Source: Bernardetiaceae bacterium (GTDB taxonomy: Bacteria > Bacteroidota > Bacteroidia > Cytophagales > Bernardetiaceae). Taken from it: 35,808 bases of DNA. Position 1 is the stretch's first letter. Each line of letters begins with the position of its first letter. Position numbers and translations under genes: made by a program. Shown here piece by piece: positions 5,448 to 35,004 of this stretch. The notes below the pieces were generated by a model, which was not told the origin of the DNA, did no database searches, and worked only from the letters and a program-made list of their open reading frames with translations. The stretch covers positions 1 to 35,808 of the forward strand of contig JAFIER010000207.1 of assembly GCA_020832465.1 (NCBI GenBank), in the 5' to 3' direction.

Positions 5448-5949
5448 AATTTGTTTTATAAAAAGACAAACAAGTTTTAAAGGGCATTCTAAAACGACCT
5501 ATAAGGTAACTTCATGCGATACAATTTCGTTTAATAAAAAAGCAAAACACCTCAAAAATTTAGTCTCTTGCTTAGGCAATGGTGAAAGTTTTTAGTTTAT
5601 TTATCTTAAATTTGCAATCTATAAAAAAAAATAGTAGTTTTCGCTATGAATTGTTCGTACACCAAATGTTGTATAAGCAATATAGGTCCAGTAGTACGGG
5701 TGCATTTCAAAACTATGCGGTTTGTGTTTGGTGGGGACAGCAAACACGGCGAGCGTAGTTGTTTTAAGACAGTAGCTTATGCTACTGCGTAAATATGAAT
5801 TGCACCCAGTAGTGCTCAAAGTTTTTTAGTACTTTGTAGTGCCATATTCCATGAGCAAGGATTAGCAAGCAATTATTCACATAATTAAGAACAAACTCAT
5901 TACGATTTTTGCGTTTAGCTGTATCATTCATATTTTTAAGTTGTAACTC
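5448..5949. other. divergent intergenic region with an inserted 108-bp element
   Basis: About 500 bp between msrA (minus) and the coiled-coil gene (plus). The only structure recognised is MITE-like element D1 at 5698-5805 with its flanking direct repeats. The outer parts are AT-rich and presumably carry the two promoters, but no complete -33/-7 pair was recognised. Confidence 0.5.
5698..5805 (+). mobile_element. MITE-like element D1 (108 bp)
   Basis: Starts GGGTGCATTTC and ends GAATTGCAC, giving imperfect terminal inverted repeats. Flanked by 10-bp direct repeats CCAGTAGTAC (5688-5697) and CCAGTAGTGC (5806-5815), 9 of 10 identical, as expected from target-site duplication. It holds an internal hairpin (GTGTTTG ... 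CAAACAC) and AGTAGC-TTAT-GCTACT. No coding capacity. Nearly identical to D2 at 8388. Confidence 0.8.
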
Positions 5950-6795
5950 ATGAAAAACGGTTTCTCATACCCCCCTACTAATTGGGTCAAATATGTAATA
6001 GCTATTATCCTGCTTGCGGCGGTCGTGGCGTATTTTGTAACGTTAGCCTCTTCCTCCTCTGTGGATAAAAGCGAAATCGATAAAGAGTTTTTGCTTCAAG
6101 ATATTCAAATGGCCAATAAAGAAAATTTGCGCAAAATAGAAGACCTCCAAGCCCAACTCAAAGAGGCTGAAGAAAAACAAAAAAAATTAGAAAAAGAAAA
6201 CGAAAAAAAACAAGCCCTACTAGATAATAAAGGCGACCAAATTACAAATAAGCAAAGCGATATCGATGAATTACAAAATCAAATACGCGAGCTTAAATCT
6301 GATAAACAACGCCTCCACGAAATTATAGATAGCAGAGGCAATGAAGTTAAATCTTTAAGCGAACGCAATAAAGAACAAAACGAACTGCTCAAATCTACAC
6401 AAGAGCAACTCCGAACCTCACAAGAAGACTATCAAAAAGAACGAAAAAACTCACAAGATAGCCAACAAGAACTCAAACTTTTGCAAGAAAAATATAATAC
6501 CATAGAGACAGAACACCGAGAAACACAACGACAATTTACACAAATGATGAGTGAAATTAGCCAGCTCAAAGTAGAGCTTAATCAAGCTAAAATAGACCTC
6601 AATGATGCACAAACCGAACTCAAAATTATGAAAGGCATTCAAAGCCAAACTACGGCAAACCTGCCCACACAGCAACAGCTCAACACAGGCAGCAACCAAA
6701 CAGACAATGACAGCAACAATGCACTCAAAATTGTAGCTATTGTATCGGTTATTGTTATGTTTATTGTGTTTGTCGTATATATGTTACATAATTAA
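5950..6795 (+). CDS. coiled-coil protein with a transmembrane segment at each end
   Basis: 281 residues, family not recognised. An N-terminal hydrophobic helix (about 14-33) is followed by a long Glu/Lys/Gln-rich heptad region (about 38-230), a Gln/Asn/Thr-rich linker (about 231-256) and a C-terminal hydrophobic helix (about 258-279) ending only a few residues before the stop. The two membrane segments imply that the whole coiled coil lies on one side of the membrane, or that it spans between two membranes; the sequence does not decide. Low Cys and no catalytic motif suggest a structural or scaffolding role. The next gene on the same strand also ends in a membrane helix, but a 314-bp gap with an inserted element separates them, so co-transcription is uncertain. 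The Met at 5950 directly precedes the hydrophobic segment and is a good start. Confidence 0.8.
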   Translation: MKNGFSYPPTNWVKYVIAIILLAAVVAYFVTLASSSSVDKSEIDKEFLLQDIQMANKENLRKIEDLQAQLKEAEEKQKKLEKENEKKQALLDNKGDQITNKQSDIDELQNQIRELKSDKQRLHEIIDSRGNEVKSLSERNKEQNELLKSTQEQLRTSQEDYQKERKNSQDSQQELKLLQEKYNTIETEHRETQRQFTQMMSEISQLKVELNQAKIDLNDAQTELKIMKGIQSQTTANLPTQQQLNTGSNQTDNDSNNALKIVAIVSVIVMFIVFVVYMLHN

Positions 6796-6847
6796 AACTT
6801 GAGCGATAAAAGCAGGCGGGTGCACGACAACTTTGCTAAATTAGCCC

Positions 6848-6880
6848 AGAAATAACATTTCTTAAAGAAATATTATTTCT
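6848..6880. repeat. 33-nt hairpin module, class A (copy A2)
   Basis: Arms AGAAATAACATTTCT and AGAAATATTATTTCT around TAA, one G-T type mismatch. Lies within element E1, 18 bp before copy B2. Confidence 0.85.
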
Positions 6881-6898
6881 ATAATTAACTAAGCATCA

Positions 6899-6931
6899 AG
6901 CACTAACAGTTTTCTCAAAACTGTTAGTGCT
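6899..6931. repeat. 33-nt hairpin module, class B (copy B2)
   Basis: Arms AGCACTAACAGTTTT and AAAACTGTTAGTGCT around CTC, a perfect 15-bp stem. Relative to other copies the inner pairs have changed on both sides (TTTT/AAAA), so pairing is kept. Within element E1. Confidence 0.9.
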
Positions 6932-7109
6932 GAAACTATCTAAACCGATTTACCAACTTGACGTACACCCAAGCAGGCTATGAGTGCTAAATTTTTGAAC
7001 TCTTATTCTTCTTATCTTATTGATTTTTTAGCGCGCAGCAGGGCACAGGCTGCGTTATTGAAATAACTAAAAACAACTACTTCTTTACCTTGAAACATCT
7101 ATTATACTA

Positions 7110-8222
7110 ATGGCTGATTATTTGAGTGAAAAAAAAGACGATAGCAAAGACCGAATCATTTGCAACAACTGCGGTGCATCGCTAAAATTTGCACCAGGTA
7201 CGACTTCGCTGGCTTGCAACTACTGCGGTGCCAAAAACGAAATTGTATCTCAAAATGCAGATGTAATCATAGAAGAGCATGACTTCCTCGAAACTTTGCG
7301 CAAAGGATTAAGTGTGCAGCAGGAGCGCACAGTAGCTACTGCCGACTGTACCGCTTGTGGCGCTATAACCACCATGCCACCTAATGTAACCTCGACAGAG
7401 TGTGCTTTTTGTGCGACACCTATAGTCATCAAAGGCGGAACGCTCAACGAAACATGCGTGCTACAGCCCAAATCCTTATTACCCTTTGCCATAGACCAAA
7501 AACAAGGGCAGGAACGATTTAAAAACTGGATATCAAGCCTTTGGTTTGCACCCAATAACCTCAAAAAAGCCGCTTCTGTATCCGAAAAACTCAAAGGTAT
7601 GTATATCCCCTATTGGACTTACGATAGCCAAACTTACACGATATACAGAGGTGAACGTGGTACTAACTATACTGTAACAGAAACCTATACCGATTCTGAC
7701 GGCAAAACGCAAACACGCCAAGTAACTAAAATCCGTTGGACGCCCGCCTCCGGCAACATCGATCTATTTTTTGATGACGTACTTGTCTTAGCAAGCCATT
7801 CATTGCCCTACGAGCATGCCGAAAATCTTGCACCTTGGGATTTGCCAGATCTTGTACCCTTTGATGAACAGTATATCACTGGATTTCAAACCGAAATTTA
7901 TCAAGTAGATTTGGAATCTGGGTTTACCGTAGCCAAAAATAAAATGGAAGAAAAGCTAAAGGTTGCTATTAAAAGAGACATCGGTGGAGACCACCAGCGC
8001 ATTCACCACATGGACGTTGATTTTCAAGATATTACATTTAAACATATTTTGCTACCCATTTGGATTAGTGCATATAAGTACAACAAAAAAGTATATCGTT
8101 TTCTTATCAACGGACGCACCGGCAAAGTACAAGGCGAGAGACCTTATAGCGCTATCAAAATTGCACTCGCTGTAATTGCTGTATTGGCAATTATTTTTGC
8201 ACTCTATTACTTCTCTCAATAA
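7110..8222 (+). CDS. double zinc-ribbon protein with C-terminal membrane anchor
   Basis: 370 residues. Two four-cysteine zinc ribbons are visible: CNNC...CNYC (Cys18, 21, 36, 39) and CTAC...CAFC (Cys80, 83, 98, 101). A middle domain follows with a conserved-looking stretch (YWTYDSQTYTIYRGERG, then RWTPASGNIDLFFDDVLVLAS) known from bacterial proteins often named TFIIB-type zinc-ribbon or PriA-like; those names reflect the ribbon only, and no helicase or replication domain is present. A hydrophobic helix (about 350-368) ends the protein, so it is probably tail-anchored with the ribbons in the cytoplasm. Function is unknown; a role in recognising a protein or nucleic-acid partner at the membrane is inference. 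The upstream neighbour also has a C-terminal membrane helix. Confidence 0.8.
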   Translation: MADYLSEKKDDSKDRIICNNCGASLKFAPGTTSLACNYCGAKNEIVSQNADVIIEEHDFLETLRKGLSVQQERTVATADCTACGAITTMPPNVTSTECAFCATPIVIKGGTLNETCVLQPKSLLPFAIDQKQGQERFKNWISSLWFAPNNLKKAASVSEKLKGMYIPYWTYDSQTYTIYRGERGTNYTVTETYTDSDGKTQTRQVTKIRWTPASGNIDLFFDDVLVLASHSLPYEHAENLAPWDLPDLVPFDEQYITGFQTEIYQVDLESGFTVAKNKMEEKLKVAIKRDIGGDHQRIHHMDVDFQDITFKHILLPIWISAYKYNKKVYRFLINGRTGKVQGERPYSAIKIALAVIAVLAIIFALYYFSQ

Positions 8223-8230
8223 TTGCGAAA

Positions 8231-8325
8231 CACTTCTACTATACTTGTGCTAAACAGCACTAACAGTTCTCAGAGAACTGTTAGTGCTGTTTCTTAGTGC
8301 TTATTGGTAAATGTATAGTAGTATG
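8231..8325 (+). mobile_element. MITE-like element F1 carrying hairpin B3
   Basis: Right end AATGTATAGTAGTATG is the complement of the F-family terminus CATACTACTATACATT; the left end CACTTCTACTATACTT is a diverged match. Flanks ATTGCGAAA (8222-8230) and ATTCGGGAA (8326-8334) agree at 6 of 9 positions, a weak trace of a target duplication. Inside is a class B hairpin instead of the class A hairpin of F2 and F3. Confidence 0.55.
8256..8288. repeat. 33-nt hairpin module, class B (copy B3)
   Basis: Arms AGCACTAACAGTTCT and AGAACTGTTAGTGCT around CAG, a perfect 15-bp stem extended outward by AACAG.../...CTGTT-like flanks. It lies 34 bp after the zinc-ribbon gene within element F1. Confidence 0.9.
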
Positions 8326-8387
8326 ATTCGGGAATGAAAAAATTAGCATCAAAATACTAACCTATAGCTCACGCATTACTAAGCAAG

Positions 8388-8495
8388 GGGTGCATTTCAA
8401 AACTATGCGGTTTGTGTTTGGTGGAGCCCCAAACACGGCGAGCGTAGTTGTTTTTAAGACAGTAACTTATGCTACTGCGTAAATATGAATTGCAC
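8388..8495 (+). mobile_element. MITE-like element D2 (108 bp)
   Basis: Same length and about 95 percent identical to D1, differing by one small deletion near the internal hairpin and a compensating T insertion. Flanked by perfect 10-bp direct repeats ACTAAGCAAG (8378-8387 and 8496-8505), strong evidence of insertion by transposition. Ends GGGTGCATTTC and GAATTGCAC. Non-coding. Confidence 0.85.
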
Positions 8496-8505
8496 ACTAA
8501 GCAAG

Positions 8506-14884: not shown

Positions 14885-14977
14885 CATACTACTATACGTT
14901 TTTTATGAAAAAATGGGCTTAGAAATAACATTTCTCAAAGAAATGTTATTTCTGGCTAGCGAATGTATAGTAGTATT
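14885..14977 (+). mobile_element. MITE-like element F2 carrying hairpin A3
   Basis: Left end CATACTACTATACGTT and right end AATGTATAGTAGTATT are terminal inverted repeats of about 16 bp. Direct repeats GTGGGAGCT (14876-14884) and GTGGGAGGT (14978-14986), 8 of 9 identical, flank it. The core is the class A hairpin. It lies in the convergent gap between the AsmA-like gene and a methyltransferase. Confidence 0.75.
14921..14953. repeat. 33-nt hairpin module, class A (copy A3)
   Basis: Arms AGAAATAACATTTCT and AGAAATGTTATTTCT around CAA, a perfect consensus copy, in the core of element F2. Confidence 0.9.
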
Positions 14978-22983: not shown

Positions 22984-23016
22984 AGAAATAACATTTCTTT
23001 GAGAAATGTTATTTCT
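22984..23016. repeat. 33-nt hairpin module, class A (copy A4)
   Basis: Arms AGAAATAACATTTCT and AGAAATGTTATTTCT, perfect, with loop TTG, the reverse complement of CAA, so this copy sits in the opposite orientation to most. Between uvrC (upstream) and the M23 gene. Confidence 0.9.
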
Positions 23017-25013: not shown

Positions 25014-25101
25014 CATACTACTATACATTTTTCCCTGTGGGCTTAGAAATAACATTTCTCAAAGAAATATTATTTCTATATGAAGAATGTCCAGCAGTAT
25101 G
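25014..25101 (+). mobile_element. MITE-like element F3 carrying hairpin A5
   Basis: Left end CATACTACTATACATT and right end AATGTCCAGCAGTATG are terminal inverted repeats. Flanking direct repeats GTTTTTGCT (25005-25013) and TTTTTTGCT (25102-25110) agree at 8 of 9 positions. The core is the class A hairpin with GGGCTT before it, as in F2. Confidence 0.75.
25045..25077. repeat. 33-nt hairpin module, class A (copy A5)
   Basis: Arms AGAAATAACATTTCT and AGAAATATTATTTCT around CAA. Core of element F3, between the uvrC start and the 3' end of an LVIVD-type lipoprotein gene. Confidence 0.88.
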
Positions 25102-30720: not shown

Positions 30721-30753
30721 AGAACTAACAGTTTTTTAGAAGCTGTTAGTTCT
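30721..30753. repeat. 33-nt hairpin module, class B (copy B4)
   Basis: Arms AGAACTAACAGTTTT and GAAGCTGTTAGTTCT around TTA, with outer TCA/TGA extension to 39 nt. It occupies the 66-bp convergent gap between the thioesterase and brxA and is the best candidate for a shared terminator. Confidence 0.85.
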
Positions 30754-32536: not shown

Positions 32537-32631
32537 GTGATTCAGTAATTTAAGGTATTTGGTCTAAACACCAAACACGGCGAGCGCAGTGCGCTTAGTT
32601 TTATAAGATTATGCTAAAATATGAAATACAC
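32537..32631 (+). mobile_element. degenerate MITE-like element D4
   Basis: The right half (CCAAACACGGCGAGCG, then TTATGCTA and TATGAAATACAC) matches D1/D2; the left half is shortened and diverged. The internal hairpin is kept as TTTGGT-CTAAAC-ACCAAA. No direct repeats are recognisable at the ends. Confidence 0.45.
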
Positions 32632-32738
32632 CCCTCGTGATAATCTTTATTGTGCTTCATACTACGCTATACATTTGCCAGGTGTACGTCAAGTTGGCAA
32701 ATCAACTTAGATAGTTTCAGCCTTCACAGTTTTTAAAG

Positions 32739-32801
32739 CTGTAGCCCGAAGATCCAAGCTTCGGAAGTGGCTTATAACGAAGCTGGAGCTTCGTACTACA
32801 G
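32739..32801. repeat. 63-bp nested palindrome (G2)
   Basis: Outer arms CTGTAGCCCGAAG and CTTCGTACTACAG pair at 11 of 13. Inside are two smaller hairpins, CCGAAG ... CTTCGG and ACGAAGCT-GG-AGCTTCGT. The arrangement, a palindrome made of palindromes, resembles the plan of the 33-nt modules. Confidence 0.55.
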
Positions 32802-32830
32802 GCAATAAAGATATTAGATGTCAAATTTTT

Positions 32831-32863
32831 AGAAATGACATTTCTGACAGAAATGTTATTTCC
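32831..32863. repeat. 33-nt hairpin module, class A (copy A9)
   Basis: Arms AGAAATGACATTTCT and AGAAATGTTATTTCC around GAC, near the right end of element E2. Confidence 0.8.
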
Positions 32864-33027
32864 GAGATAATTTAGCAAAATTGTCGTACACCCGTTTATG
32901 CTAAGTCTAACAAAGGCATTGCCTAAAAAGTTATAAGAGATGCGCGCATCGAGATTTAGACATTAGCCTTAACATACAAATTAACGTAATAAAAATCTTG
33001 TTATAGCTTTTTCTCTCCGTCTAATTT

Positions 33028-34221: not shown

Positions 34222-34290
34222 GCTGAACGCAATAATGGTTATTGTTGCGCAAATTTTATTTTATTTTAAAACAAATACAAAGACAAATAG

Positions 34291-34845: not shown

Positions 34846-34915
34846 TTTTTTTTAGTTGCTACTCATGTGTTATTATTTTCGGGTAGTCTTAAAGATGTAA
34901 TGCTCAAAGTCTTTC

Positions 34916-34948
34916 AAAACTAACAGTTCTCAAAGAACTGTTAGTTCT
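34916..34948. repeat. 33-nt hairpin module, class B (copy B5)
   Basis: Arms AAAACTAACAGTTCT and AGAACTGTTAGTTCT around CAA, the class B counterpart of the class A consensus. One mismatch at the outer end. Between the two small-protein genes. Confidence 0.85.
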
Positions 34949-35004
34949 AAGCATTACTTGTTATACACTACCTATTTTCGTAAACCCCTGTTTGGCAGGT
35001 TATT

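What the first reader, a model, noticed from the sequence alone, without database searches (positions are those of the whole stretch)
5698..8495. Two near-identical 108-bp elements with 10-bp target-site duplications
D1 (5698-5805) and D2 (8388-8495) have the same length, the same ends (GGGTGCATTTC and GAATTGCAC) and about 95 percent identity. D2 is flanked by perfect ACTAAGCAAG repeats and D1 by CCAGTAGTAC/CCAGTAGTGC. Different duplicated targets at two sites show independent insertion. The size, lack of coding and inverted ends fit a MITE; a 10-bp duplication points to an IS4-like transposase, which is inference.
Basis: partly seen in the sequence, partly recalled or inferred. Interest (0 to 1): 0.7.

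Follow-up and report, generated by a model that had tools for sequence, protein, structure and literature searches.

The report
Small jumping DNA repeats, ISKra4-type
The two repeats are real copies of a small gene-less mobile element that recurs dozens of times in this bacterium, and they were most likely moved by an ISKra4-type transposase rather than the IS4-type enzyme first guessed.

Summary
D1 and D2 are real copies of one MITE family (F1), but the boundaries and the enzyme guess were wrong. BLAST finds 40 places in the 4.6-Mb genome (a capped count). Two F1 copies interrupt repeats whose uninterrupted versions exist elsewhere in the genome. Two contigs end inside a longer element whose end matches the MITE's right end at 20 of 21 positions and encodes the C-terminus of an ISKra4-type transposase; complete ISKra4-type ISs of other Bacteroidota have similar ends and mostly 8-bp duplications. 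D1 and D2 are therefore most likely non-autonomous derivatives of an ISKra4-type IS; the IS4 guess is not supported. This is a new member of a known kind. The genome also carries at least three other MITE families; 52 of 60 candidate copies enclose one 33-bp palindrome, found about 1,000 times here and at 6 places in 18 relatives.

The parts
5698..5807 (+). F1 MITE copy D1, 110 bp, TIRs GGGTGCATTTC / GAATTGCACCC
5690..5697 (.). left 8-bp target duplication of D1, AGTAGTAC
5808..5815 (.). right 8-bp target duplication of D1, AGTAGTGC (one mismatch)
8388..8497 (+). F1 MITE copy D2, 110 bp; last bases CAC instead of CCC
8380..8387 (.). left 8-bp target duplication of D2, TAAGCAAG
8498..8505 (.). 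right 8-bp target duplication of D2, TAAGCAAG
32555..32633 (+). relic of a third F1-like copy: hairpin 1 and right end only, no left end
6818..6970 (+). F2 MITE, 153 bp, ends GGGTGCACGACAA / TTGACGTACACCC, perfect 8-bp duplication AAGCAGGC, two 33-bp palindromes inside; ends resemble an ISKra4-type IS of Bernardetia
32680..32893 (+). F2-like element, 214 bp, no target duplication (5 of 8 positions mismatched), so decayed or recombined
34882..34972 (+). F3 MITE, 91 bp, ends GGTAGT / ACTACC, perfect 8-bp duplication TATTTTCG, 33-bp palindrome inside
14885..14977 (+). F4 element, ends like CATACTACTATACATT / AATGTATAGTAGTATG, 9-bp duplication with one mismatch, 33-bp palindrome inside; uninterrupted counterpart of the site that F1 copy L021 interrupts
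25014..25101 (+). F4 element, 9-bp duplication with one mismatch, 33-bp palindrome inside

Best explanation
D1 and D2 are copies of a 110-bp MITE, the non-autonomous derivative of an ISKra4-type insertion sequence. The transposase (a DDE enzyme of the Mutator superfamily, the p-MULT 4 group of PMC3942029) would bind the roughly 21-bp ends in trans, cut the target with an 8-base stagger and insert the element, leaving 8-bp duplications. Shown: the ends, the 8-bp duplications, many copies, uninterrupted counterparts of two interrupted repeats, and a longer element in the same genome with the same end next to an ISKra4-type transposase C-terminus. Inferred: that this transposase moved the MITEs, and that a complete copy exists or existed (its body and left end were not found in this assembly).
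For: 42 BLAST matches at 40 places in the own genome, capped. TIR excess 157+155 against 41+26. 8-bp duplications: 20 perfect, 27 at most one mismatch, of 46. IS 3' ends on contigs C26 and C67 and a decayed copy on C17. Their frame matches NCBIfam ISKra4 transposase best (E 1.4e-23, next family 0.0073), and a profile of the long frames of nine foreign ISs finds these same three places (best E 3.5e-29). MITE right end against own IS end 20 of 21; MITE left end against the ends of 12 foreign ISs 11 to 19 of 21. Of 48 foreign loci examined, 15 gave inverted ends (at least 14 of 20, a limit I set on seeing the output) with a perfect 8-10-bp repeat; among the 12 from Bacteroidota the longest perfect repeat is 8 in nine, 9 in two, 10 in one. 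Joined flanks of F1 copy L021 align without a gap to window 14898-14974 (69 of 77), those of L006 to L201 (66 of 72). PMC3942029, section 11: elements of this transposase superfamily make repeats of 8 or 9 bp and have 18-39-bp IRs.
Against: No complete autonomous copy was found: both good IS ends stop at contig ends after 264 bp. NCBIfam scores are below the curated cut-off of 205 bits (83.7 for the 82-aa fragment, 160.7 for the 306-aa relative in G010). 19 of 46 paired-end copies lack an 8-bp duplication at one mismatch or better. 33 of the 48 foreign loci gave no acceptable complete IS by my script. The left end of the own IS is unseen. No comparison of strains of the species was possible.
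Confidence: 0.92

Rival explanations
1. MITE moved by an IS4-like transposase with 10-bp duplications.
For: Perfect 10-bp repeat at D2 and a near-perfect one at D1.
Against: 10 bp perfect in 3 of 46 copies, as expected from chance extension of 8 bp; the IS with the same end is ISKra4-type.
Confidence: 0.02
2. A REP-like palindromic repeat spread by a RAYT (Y1) transposase.
For: The element is rich in hairpins (z -5.5 and -5.9), and the genome has three Y1 transposase matches, one in a frame of 235 aa.
Against: 8-bp duplications, which Y1 enzymes do not make (recalled); the 235-aa gene is flanked by different small palindromes built on CACCCTTTAGGGTG. The flanks of the two shorter Y1 genes were only scanned for inverted repeats.
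Confidence: 0.02
3. The copies are now kept as functional structured RNA or hairpin elements, whatever their origin.
For: Stable three-way fold of D1 (108 nt) on both strands. On 28 copies double changes exceed most shuffles (6 pairs against a mean of 2.7, reached in 7 of 500; covariation score 0.061 against 0.055, reached in 24 of 500) and the score exceeds slid versions (0.011-0.044).
Against: Slid versions give as many double changes (2-7 pairs, 2-10 cells, against 6 and 6), and the tool warns that related rows can exceed shuffles without structure. I take this as no convincing support.
Confidence: 0.06

Closest known systems
ISKra4 family / p-MULT 4 (ISAzba1, ISMich2 and ISKra4 groups), PMC3942029 (section 11 and passages read)
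   Same: Transposase C-terminus, GGGTG ends, 8-9-bp duplications; the 12 complete relatives found in Bacteroidota are 1.1-1.3 kb, ten of them with a short frame of about 70 aa before the long one.
   Different: F1 has no transposase gene and is 110 bp; no full-length copy found in this assembly.
MITEs of other Bacteroidota: Porphyromonas gingivalis (PMC4596501, search listing only), Cardinium MITECca01 (PMC9769881, passages)
   Same: Short, non-coding, with terminal inverted repeats.
   Different: MITECca01 derives from ISCca4 of the IS982 family; the parent of the P. gingivalis MITE was not looked up.
Mosaic intergenic repeats such as BOX, RUP and SPRITE of S. pneumoniae (PMC10969869, passages) and REPs with target palindromes (PMC3733652, passages)
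   Same: Several repeat families inserted into one another in intergenic DNA.
   Different: Here families with different ends enclose one common 33-bp palindrome.

Membership tests
MITE | Short (70-300 bp), no coding capacity, terminal inverted repeats | tested here: met
   110 bp, so at most 36 codons, and no ORF of 100 aa or more overlaps either copy; 11-bp TIRs, about 21 bp with mismatches
MITE | Target-site duplications at different sites | tested here: met
   8 bp perfect in 20 of 46, at most 1 mismatch in 27 of 46
MITE | Ends shared with an autonomous element in the same genome | tested here: inconclusive
   Right end shared at 20 of 21 positions with IS 3' ends on C26 and C67; IS body and left end not found
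MITE | Mobility shown by experiment or strain comparison | not testable with these tools
   One genome per species; only within-genome uninterrupted sites
ISKra4 family (parent IS) | ISKra4-type transposase | tested here: met
   Best NCBIfam family for the 82-aa fragment, E 1.4e-23 against 0.0073 for the next, though under the curated cut-off
ISKra4 family (parent IS) | Duplications of 8 or 9 bp | tested here: met
   Seen at the MITEs and at foreign ISs; not seen at the own IS, of which one end only is assembled
ISMich2 group | Two ORFs joined by a -1 frameshift | tested here: inconclusive
   Of 12 complete Bacteroidota relatives, 6 have the long frame in -1 to the short one, 4 in the other frame, 2 show no pair (my reading); own IS not testable
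IS4 family | 10-13-bp duplications (recalled) | tested here: not met
REP with RAYT | Palindromes linked to a Y1 transposase gene, no duplication (recalled) | tested here: not met
   8-bp duplications; the one RAYT-sized gene has other palindromes

The most novel reading that the evidence does not exclude
Several MITE families with different ends in one genome have converged on, or exchange, one 33-bp palindromic core. In fetched loci F3 (20 of 20 candidates), F4 (12 of 14), F2 (20 of 26) and part of F1 (13 of 53 candidate pairs) enclose it; it occurs at 1,002 places in the genome, and its arms covary. On this reading the palindrome is a selected module, for example a two-way transcription terminator or a protein site, that makes MITE insertions tolerable, and MITEs are its vehicle. 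Caution: F3 and F4 were noticed because they flank the palindrome, so families without it may have been missed.
Probability: 0.3. Interest if true: 0.62.

Novelty: new member of a known kind. Interest (0 to 1): 0.38.

Why it matters
It ties a MITE family to the ISKra4 family. I did not see that link in print within a narrow search: (ISKra4 with MITE) listed four papers, two of which I checked by passages and two not at all; the MITE review PMC10969869 does not contain the word ISKra4 in its main text, and PMC3942029 does not contain MITE. More broadly, the genome carries an estimated 500 or so recognisable MITEs of four families, most candidate copies of three of which enclose the same palindrome, which makes it a good system for asking why bacterial MITEs carry hairpins.

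Tried and rejected
Rfam scan of the window: no family reached its threshold. Covariation of the F1 fold: not convincing (numbers under the rivals). Pfam: the 82-aa fragment had one match, to an unrelated family at E 0.18; the 306-aa relative matched UPF0236 at 2.8e-05, just under its cut-off. PF00872 (Mutator/IS256 transposase) as a parent of F3: no match in the own genome, so the parents of F3 and F4 stay unknown. RAYT as the source of the 33-bp palindrome: the RAYT-sized gene has other palindromes. A strong bias of the palindrome to gene 3' ends in the element-centred sample (23 palindromes in convergent against 4 in divergent gaps) shrank in pieces picked without looking at repeats (16 palindromes in 23 convergent gaps, 12 in 26 divergent ones), so a pure terminator reading is weak. 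F1 in 59 genomes (own included): only the own genome had element-length matches; one relative had a 46-bp hairpin match at 79%. Other-genome loci as a control (372 kb) gave no F1-F4 element with a duplication, but 15 F1 and 2 F2 end pairs without one; ten of the 15 are one spot in copies of a Hymenobacter IS. Uninterrupted sites: of 47 joined flanks 8 gave a hit across the junction; two are clean (L021, L006), L007 aligns with gaps, L004 is a self hit, and L065, L082, L002 and L005 (69-80% identity) were not looked at further. Naming the species: records of the own genome are left out of the named collection; it is probably another genus in the family of Bernardetia (inferred: G010, same family, and L131, a Bernardetia MAG, show an IS with the same ends and the same duplication). 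Paper listings on Bernardetia, Hugenholtzia and Eisenibacter showed nothing on such repeats by title or abstract. The plasmid search with the G010 transposase found 51 records, all under 60% identical, many cyanobacterial, several annotated ISKra4.

Full report
Observation. D1 and D2 are present as described. The window is a whole contig of a 4.6-Mb, 289-contig genome. BLAST with the 108-bp D1 gives 42 matches at 40 places (two elements give two pieces each); 29 cover nearly the full length at 84% identity or better, the rest are shorter or more diverged; 40 of 177 first-look candidates were scored, so this is a lower bound. Aligning the flanks shows that the true ends are GGGTGCA[A/T]TTC and GAATTGCACCC, so the element is 110 bp. 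Pairing ends (at most 2 mismatches each, 3 in all) in the loci fetched by then gave 53 candidate pairs, with perfect flanking repeats in 20 at 8 bp, 1 each at 4, 6 and 9 bp, and 0 at 5, 7 and 10-13 bp. D1 duplicates AGTAGTAC/AGTAGTGC, D2 TAAGCAAG.

Uninterrupted sites. Some F1 copies sit inside other repeats. I joined the flanks of 47 copies in a script, one 8-bp stretch removed; 8 gave a hit across the junction. Two are clean: L021 aligns without a gap to the F4 element in this window (14898-14974, 69 of 77 identical), and L006 (whose duplication is offset by one base) to L201 (66 of 72). L007 aligns only with gaps, L004 hits itself, the other four were not examined. This is within-genome evidence for insertion; strain comparison was not possible.

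Parent. Contigs C26 and C67 end 264 bp inside an element that begins with the same end; a decayed copy lies on C17 beside another F1-like element. The frame read inward is a transposase C-terminus, best matched by NCBIfam ISKra4 (E 1.4e-23, below the curated cut-off). A profile of the long frames of nine foreign ISs finds these same three places and no other (best E 3.5e-29). A scan of named genomes found 93 places and kept the best 80, of which 71 are from Bacteroidota by title. I ran 48 of the 80 through a script for complete elements, leaving out 32 in which the match lay near an end of the locus or which I had not listed; 15 of 48 gave inverted ends of at least 14 of 20 with a perfect 8-10-bp repeat, 12 of them from Bacteroidota; 33 gave nothing acceptable. 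Over 21 bases the ends of those 12 match the MITE left end at 11 to 19 positions and the right end at 12 to 19; the own IS end matches the MITE right end at 20. The 12 are 1.1-1.3 kb, ten with a short frame of about 70 aa before the long one; the frame relation is -1 in six and not in four, so membership of the ISMich2 group is open. PMC3942029 (section 11 read, other passages seen) reports repeats of 8 or 9 bp and IRs of 18-39 bp for this superfamily.

Structure. D1 (108 nt) folds into a three-way junction on either strand (z -5.5 and -5.9). On 28 aligned copies double changes exceed most shuffles (6 pairs against 2.7; 7 of 500 reach it) but not the slid controls (2-7), so nothing beyond descent from one hairpin-rich ancestor is needed. 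Nine copies of 130-131 bp have, in place of hairpin 2, a 33-bp palindrome, decayed in some.

Location. Of 47 F1 elements one lies inside an ORF of 100 aa or more and three overlap one in part. Neighbours: codirectional 22, divergent 7, convergent 6, one side unknown 11.

Wider context. The palindrome (AGAAATAACATTTCT-NNN-AGAAATGTTATTTCT and related forms) occurs at 1,002 places in the genome at up to 3 mismatches, 0 in the reversed control, 6 in one relative and 0 in the other 17 genomes of that search. In 65 distinct forms (of 80 copies) its arms covary: 67 double-changed cells against 20 in shuffles and 3-22 in slid versions; the number of pairs with a double change, 8, is reached by 70 of 500 shuffles. 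The copies were collected with a palindromic pattern (up to 4 mismatches), which favours paired cells but does not dictate which letters go together. Three further element families enclose it in the fetched loci: F2 (ends GGGTGYACG[A/T]CAA, 8-bp duplication perfect in 11 of 26 candidates), F3 (91 bp, ends GGTAGT, perfect in 17 of 20, nearly identical ends) and F4 (ends CATACTACTATACATT, 9-bp, perfect in 4 and at most one mismatch in 8 of 14). In the window plus twelve pieces of large contigs (positions picked without looking at repeats, not at random; 272 kb) 33 elements of F1-F4 have paired ends and a duplication with at most two mismatches; the reversed sequence gave none (one end pair), and 372 kb of other genomes none (15 F1 and 2 F2 end pairs without duplication). 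Without the window this is 27 in 236 kb, hence about 500 per genome. F2's ends resemble those of a complete ISKra4-type IS of Bernardetia. Of 80 palindromes in that sample 27 lie in elements with a duplication, 11 in end pairs without one, 42 in neither (looser end criteria, under which F1 and F2 are not cleanly separated). Of those 42, 12 have flanks that prolong the stem by 3 or more pairs, against about 3.4 with shuffled flanks.

Verdict. A well-supported MITE family of ISKra4 type, a new member of a known kind. The palindromic core common to several MITE families is the more unusual observation and is left as the novel reading.

Noticed in passing
window, e.g. 8256-8288, 14921-14953, 22984-23016, 30721-30753; genome-wide: 33-bp palindrome AGMAMTAACAKTTCTnnnAGAAMTGTTAKTKCT at 1,002 places in this genome (reversed control 0), 6 in one relative, 0 in 17 others; its arms covary.
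   Followed up: partly
window 34882-34972: F3, a 91-bp MITE with ends GGTAGT/ACTACC and 8-bp duplications perfect in 17 of 20 candidates, so probably young; parent transposase not found.
   Followed up: partly
window 6818-6970: F2, a 153-bp MITE with perfect duplication AAGCAGGC; ends like a complete ISKra4-type IS in a Bernardetia MAG.
   Followed up: partly
window 14885-14977 and 25014-25101: F4 elements, ends like CATACTACTATACATT, 9-bp duplications; parent unknown.
   Followed up: partly
own genome, e.g. L037 1585-1611: Hairpin GTGTTTGGTGnnGACACCAAACACGGC occurs 125 times at up to 3 mismatches in the own genome, also outside F1; three near-matches in two relatives of the family.
   Followed up: partly
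L229 1060-1767 (G000 contig C105): RAYT-sized Y1 transposase gene (235 aa) next to a methylase-like frame (named by eye), flanked by its own small palindromes built on CACCCTTTAGGGTG.
   Followed up: partly
L115 1099-1220 (Hymenobacter sp. IS2118): 122-bp stretch with ends GGGTGTAATTCAAAACTACGC / ACGTATTTTTGAATTACACCC near an ISKra4-type IS: possibly a similar MITE in Hymenobacter; no duplication seen.
   Followed up: no
G000 contig C9, 34288-34805: GGGTGC[T/G]TTTC recurs at 34288, 34543, 34669 and 34795 (steps 255, 126, 126): probably a tandem repeat, not a MITE.
   Followed up: no
window about 32740-32810; L201; L214: Another palindromic repeat built on GAAGCTGGAGCTTC, itself the target of an F1 insertion (L006).
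   Followed up: no
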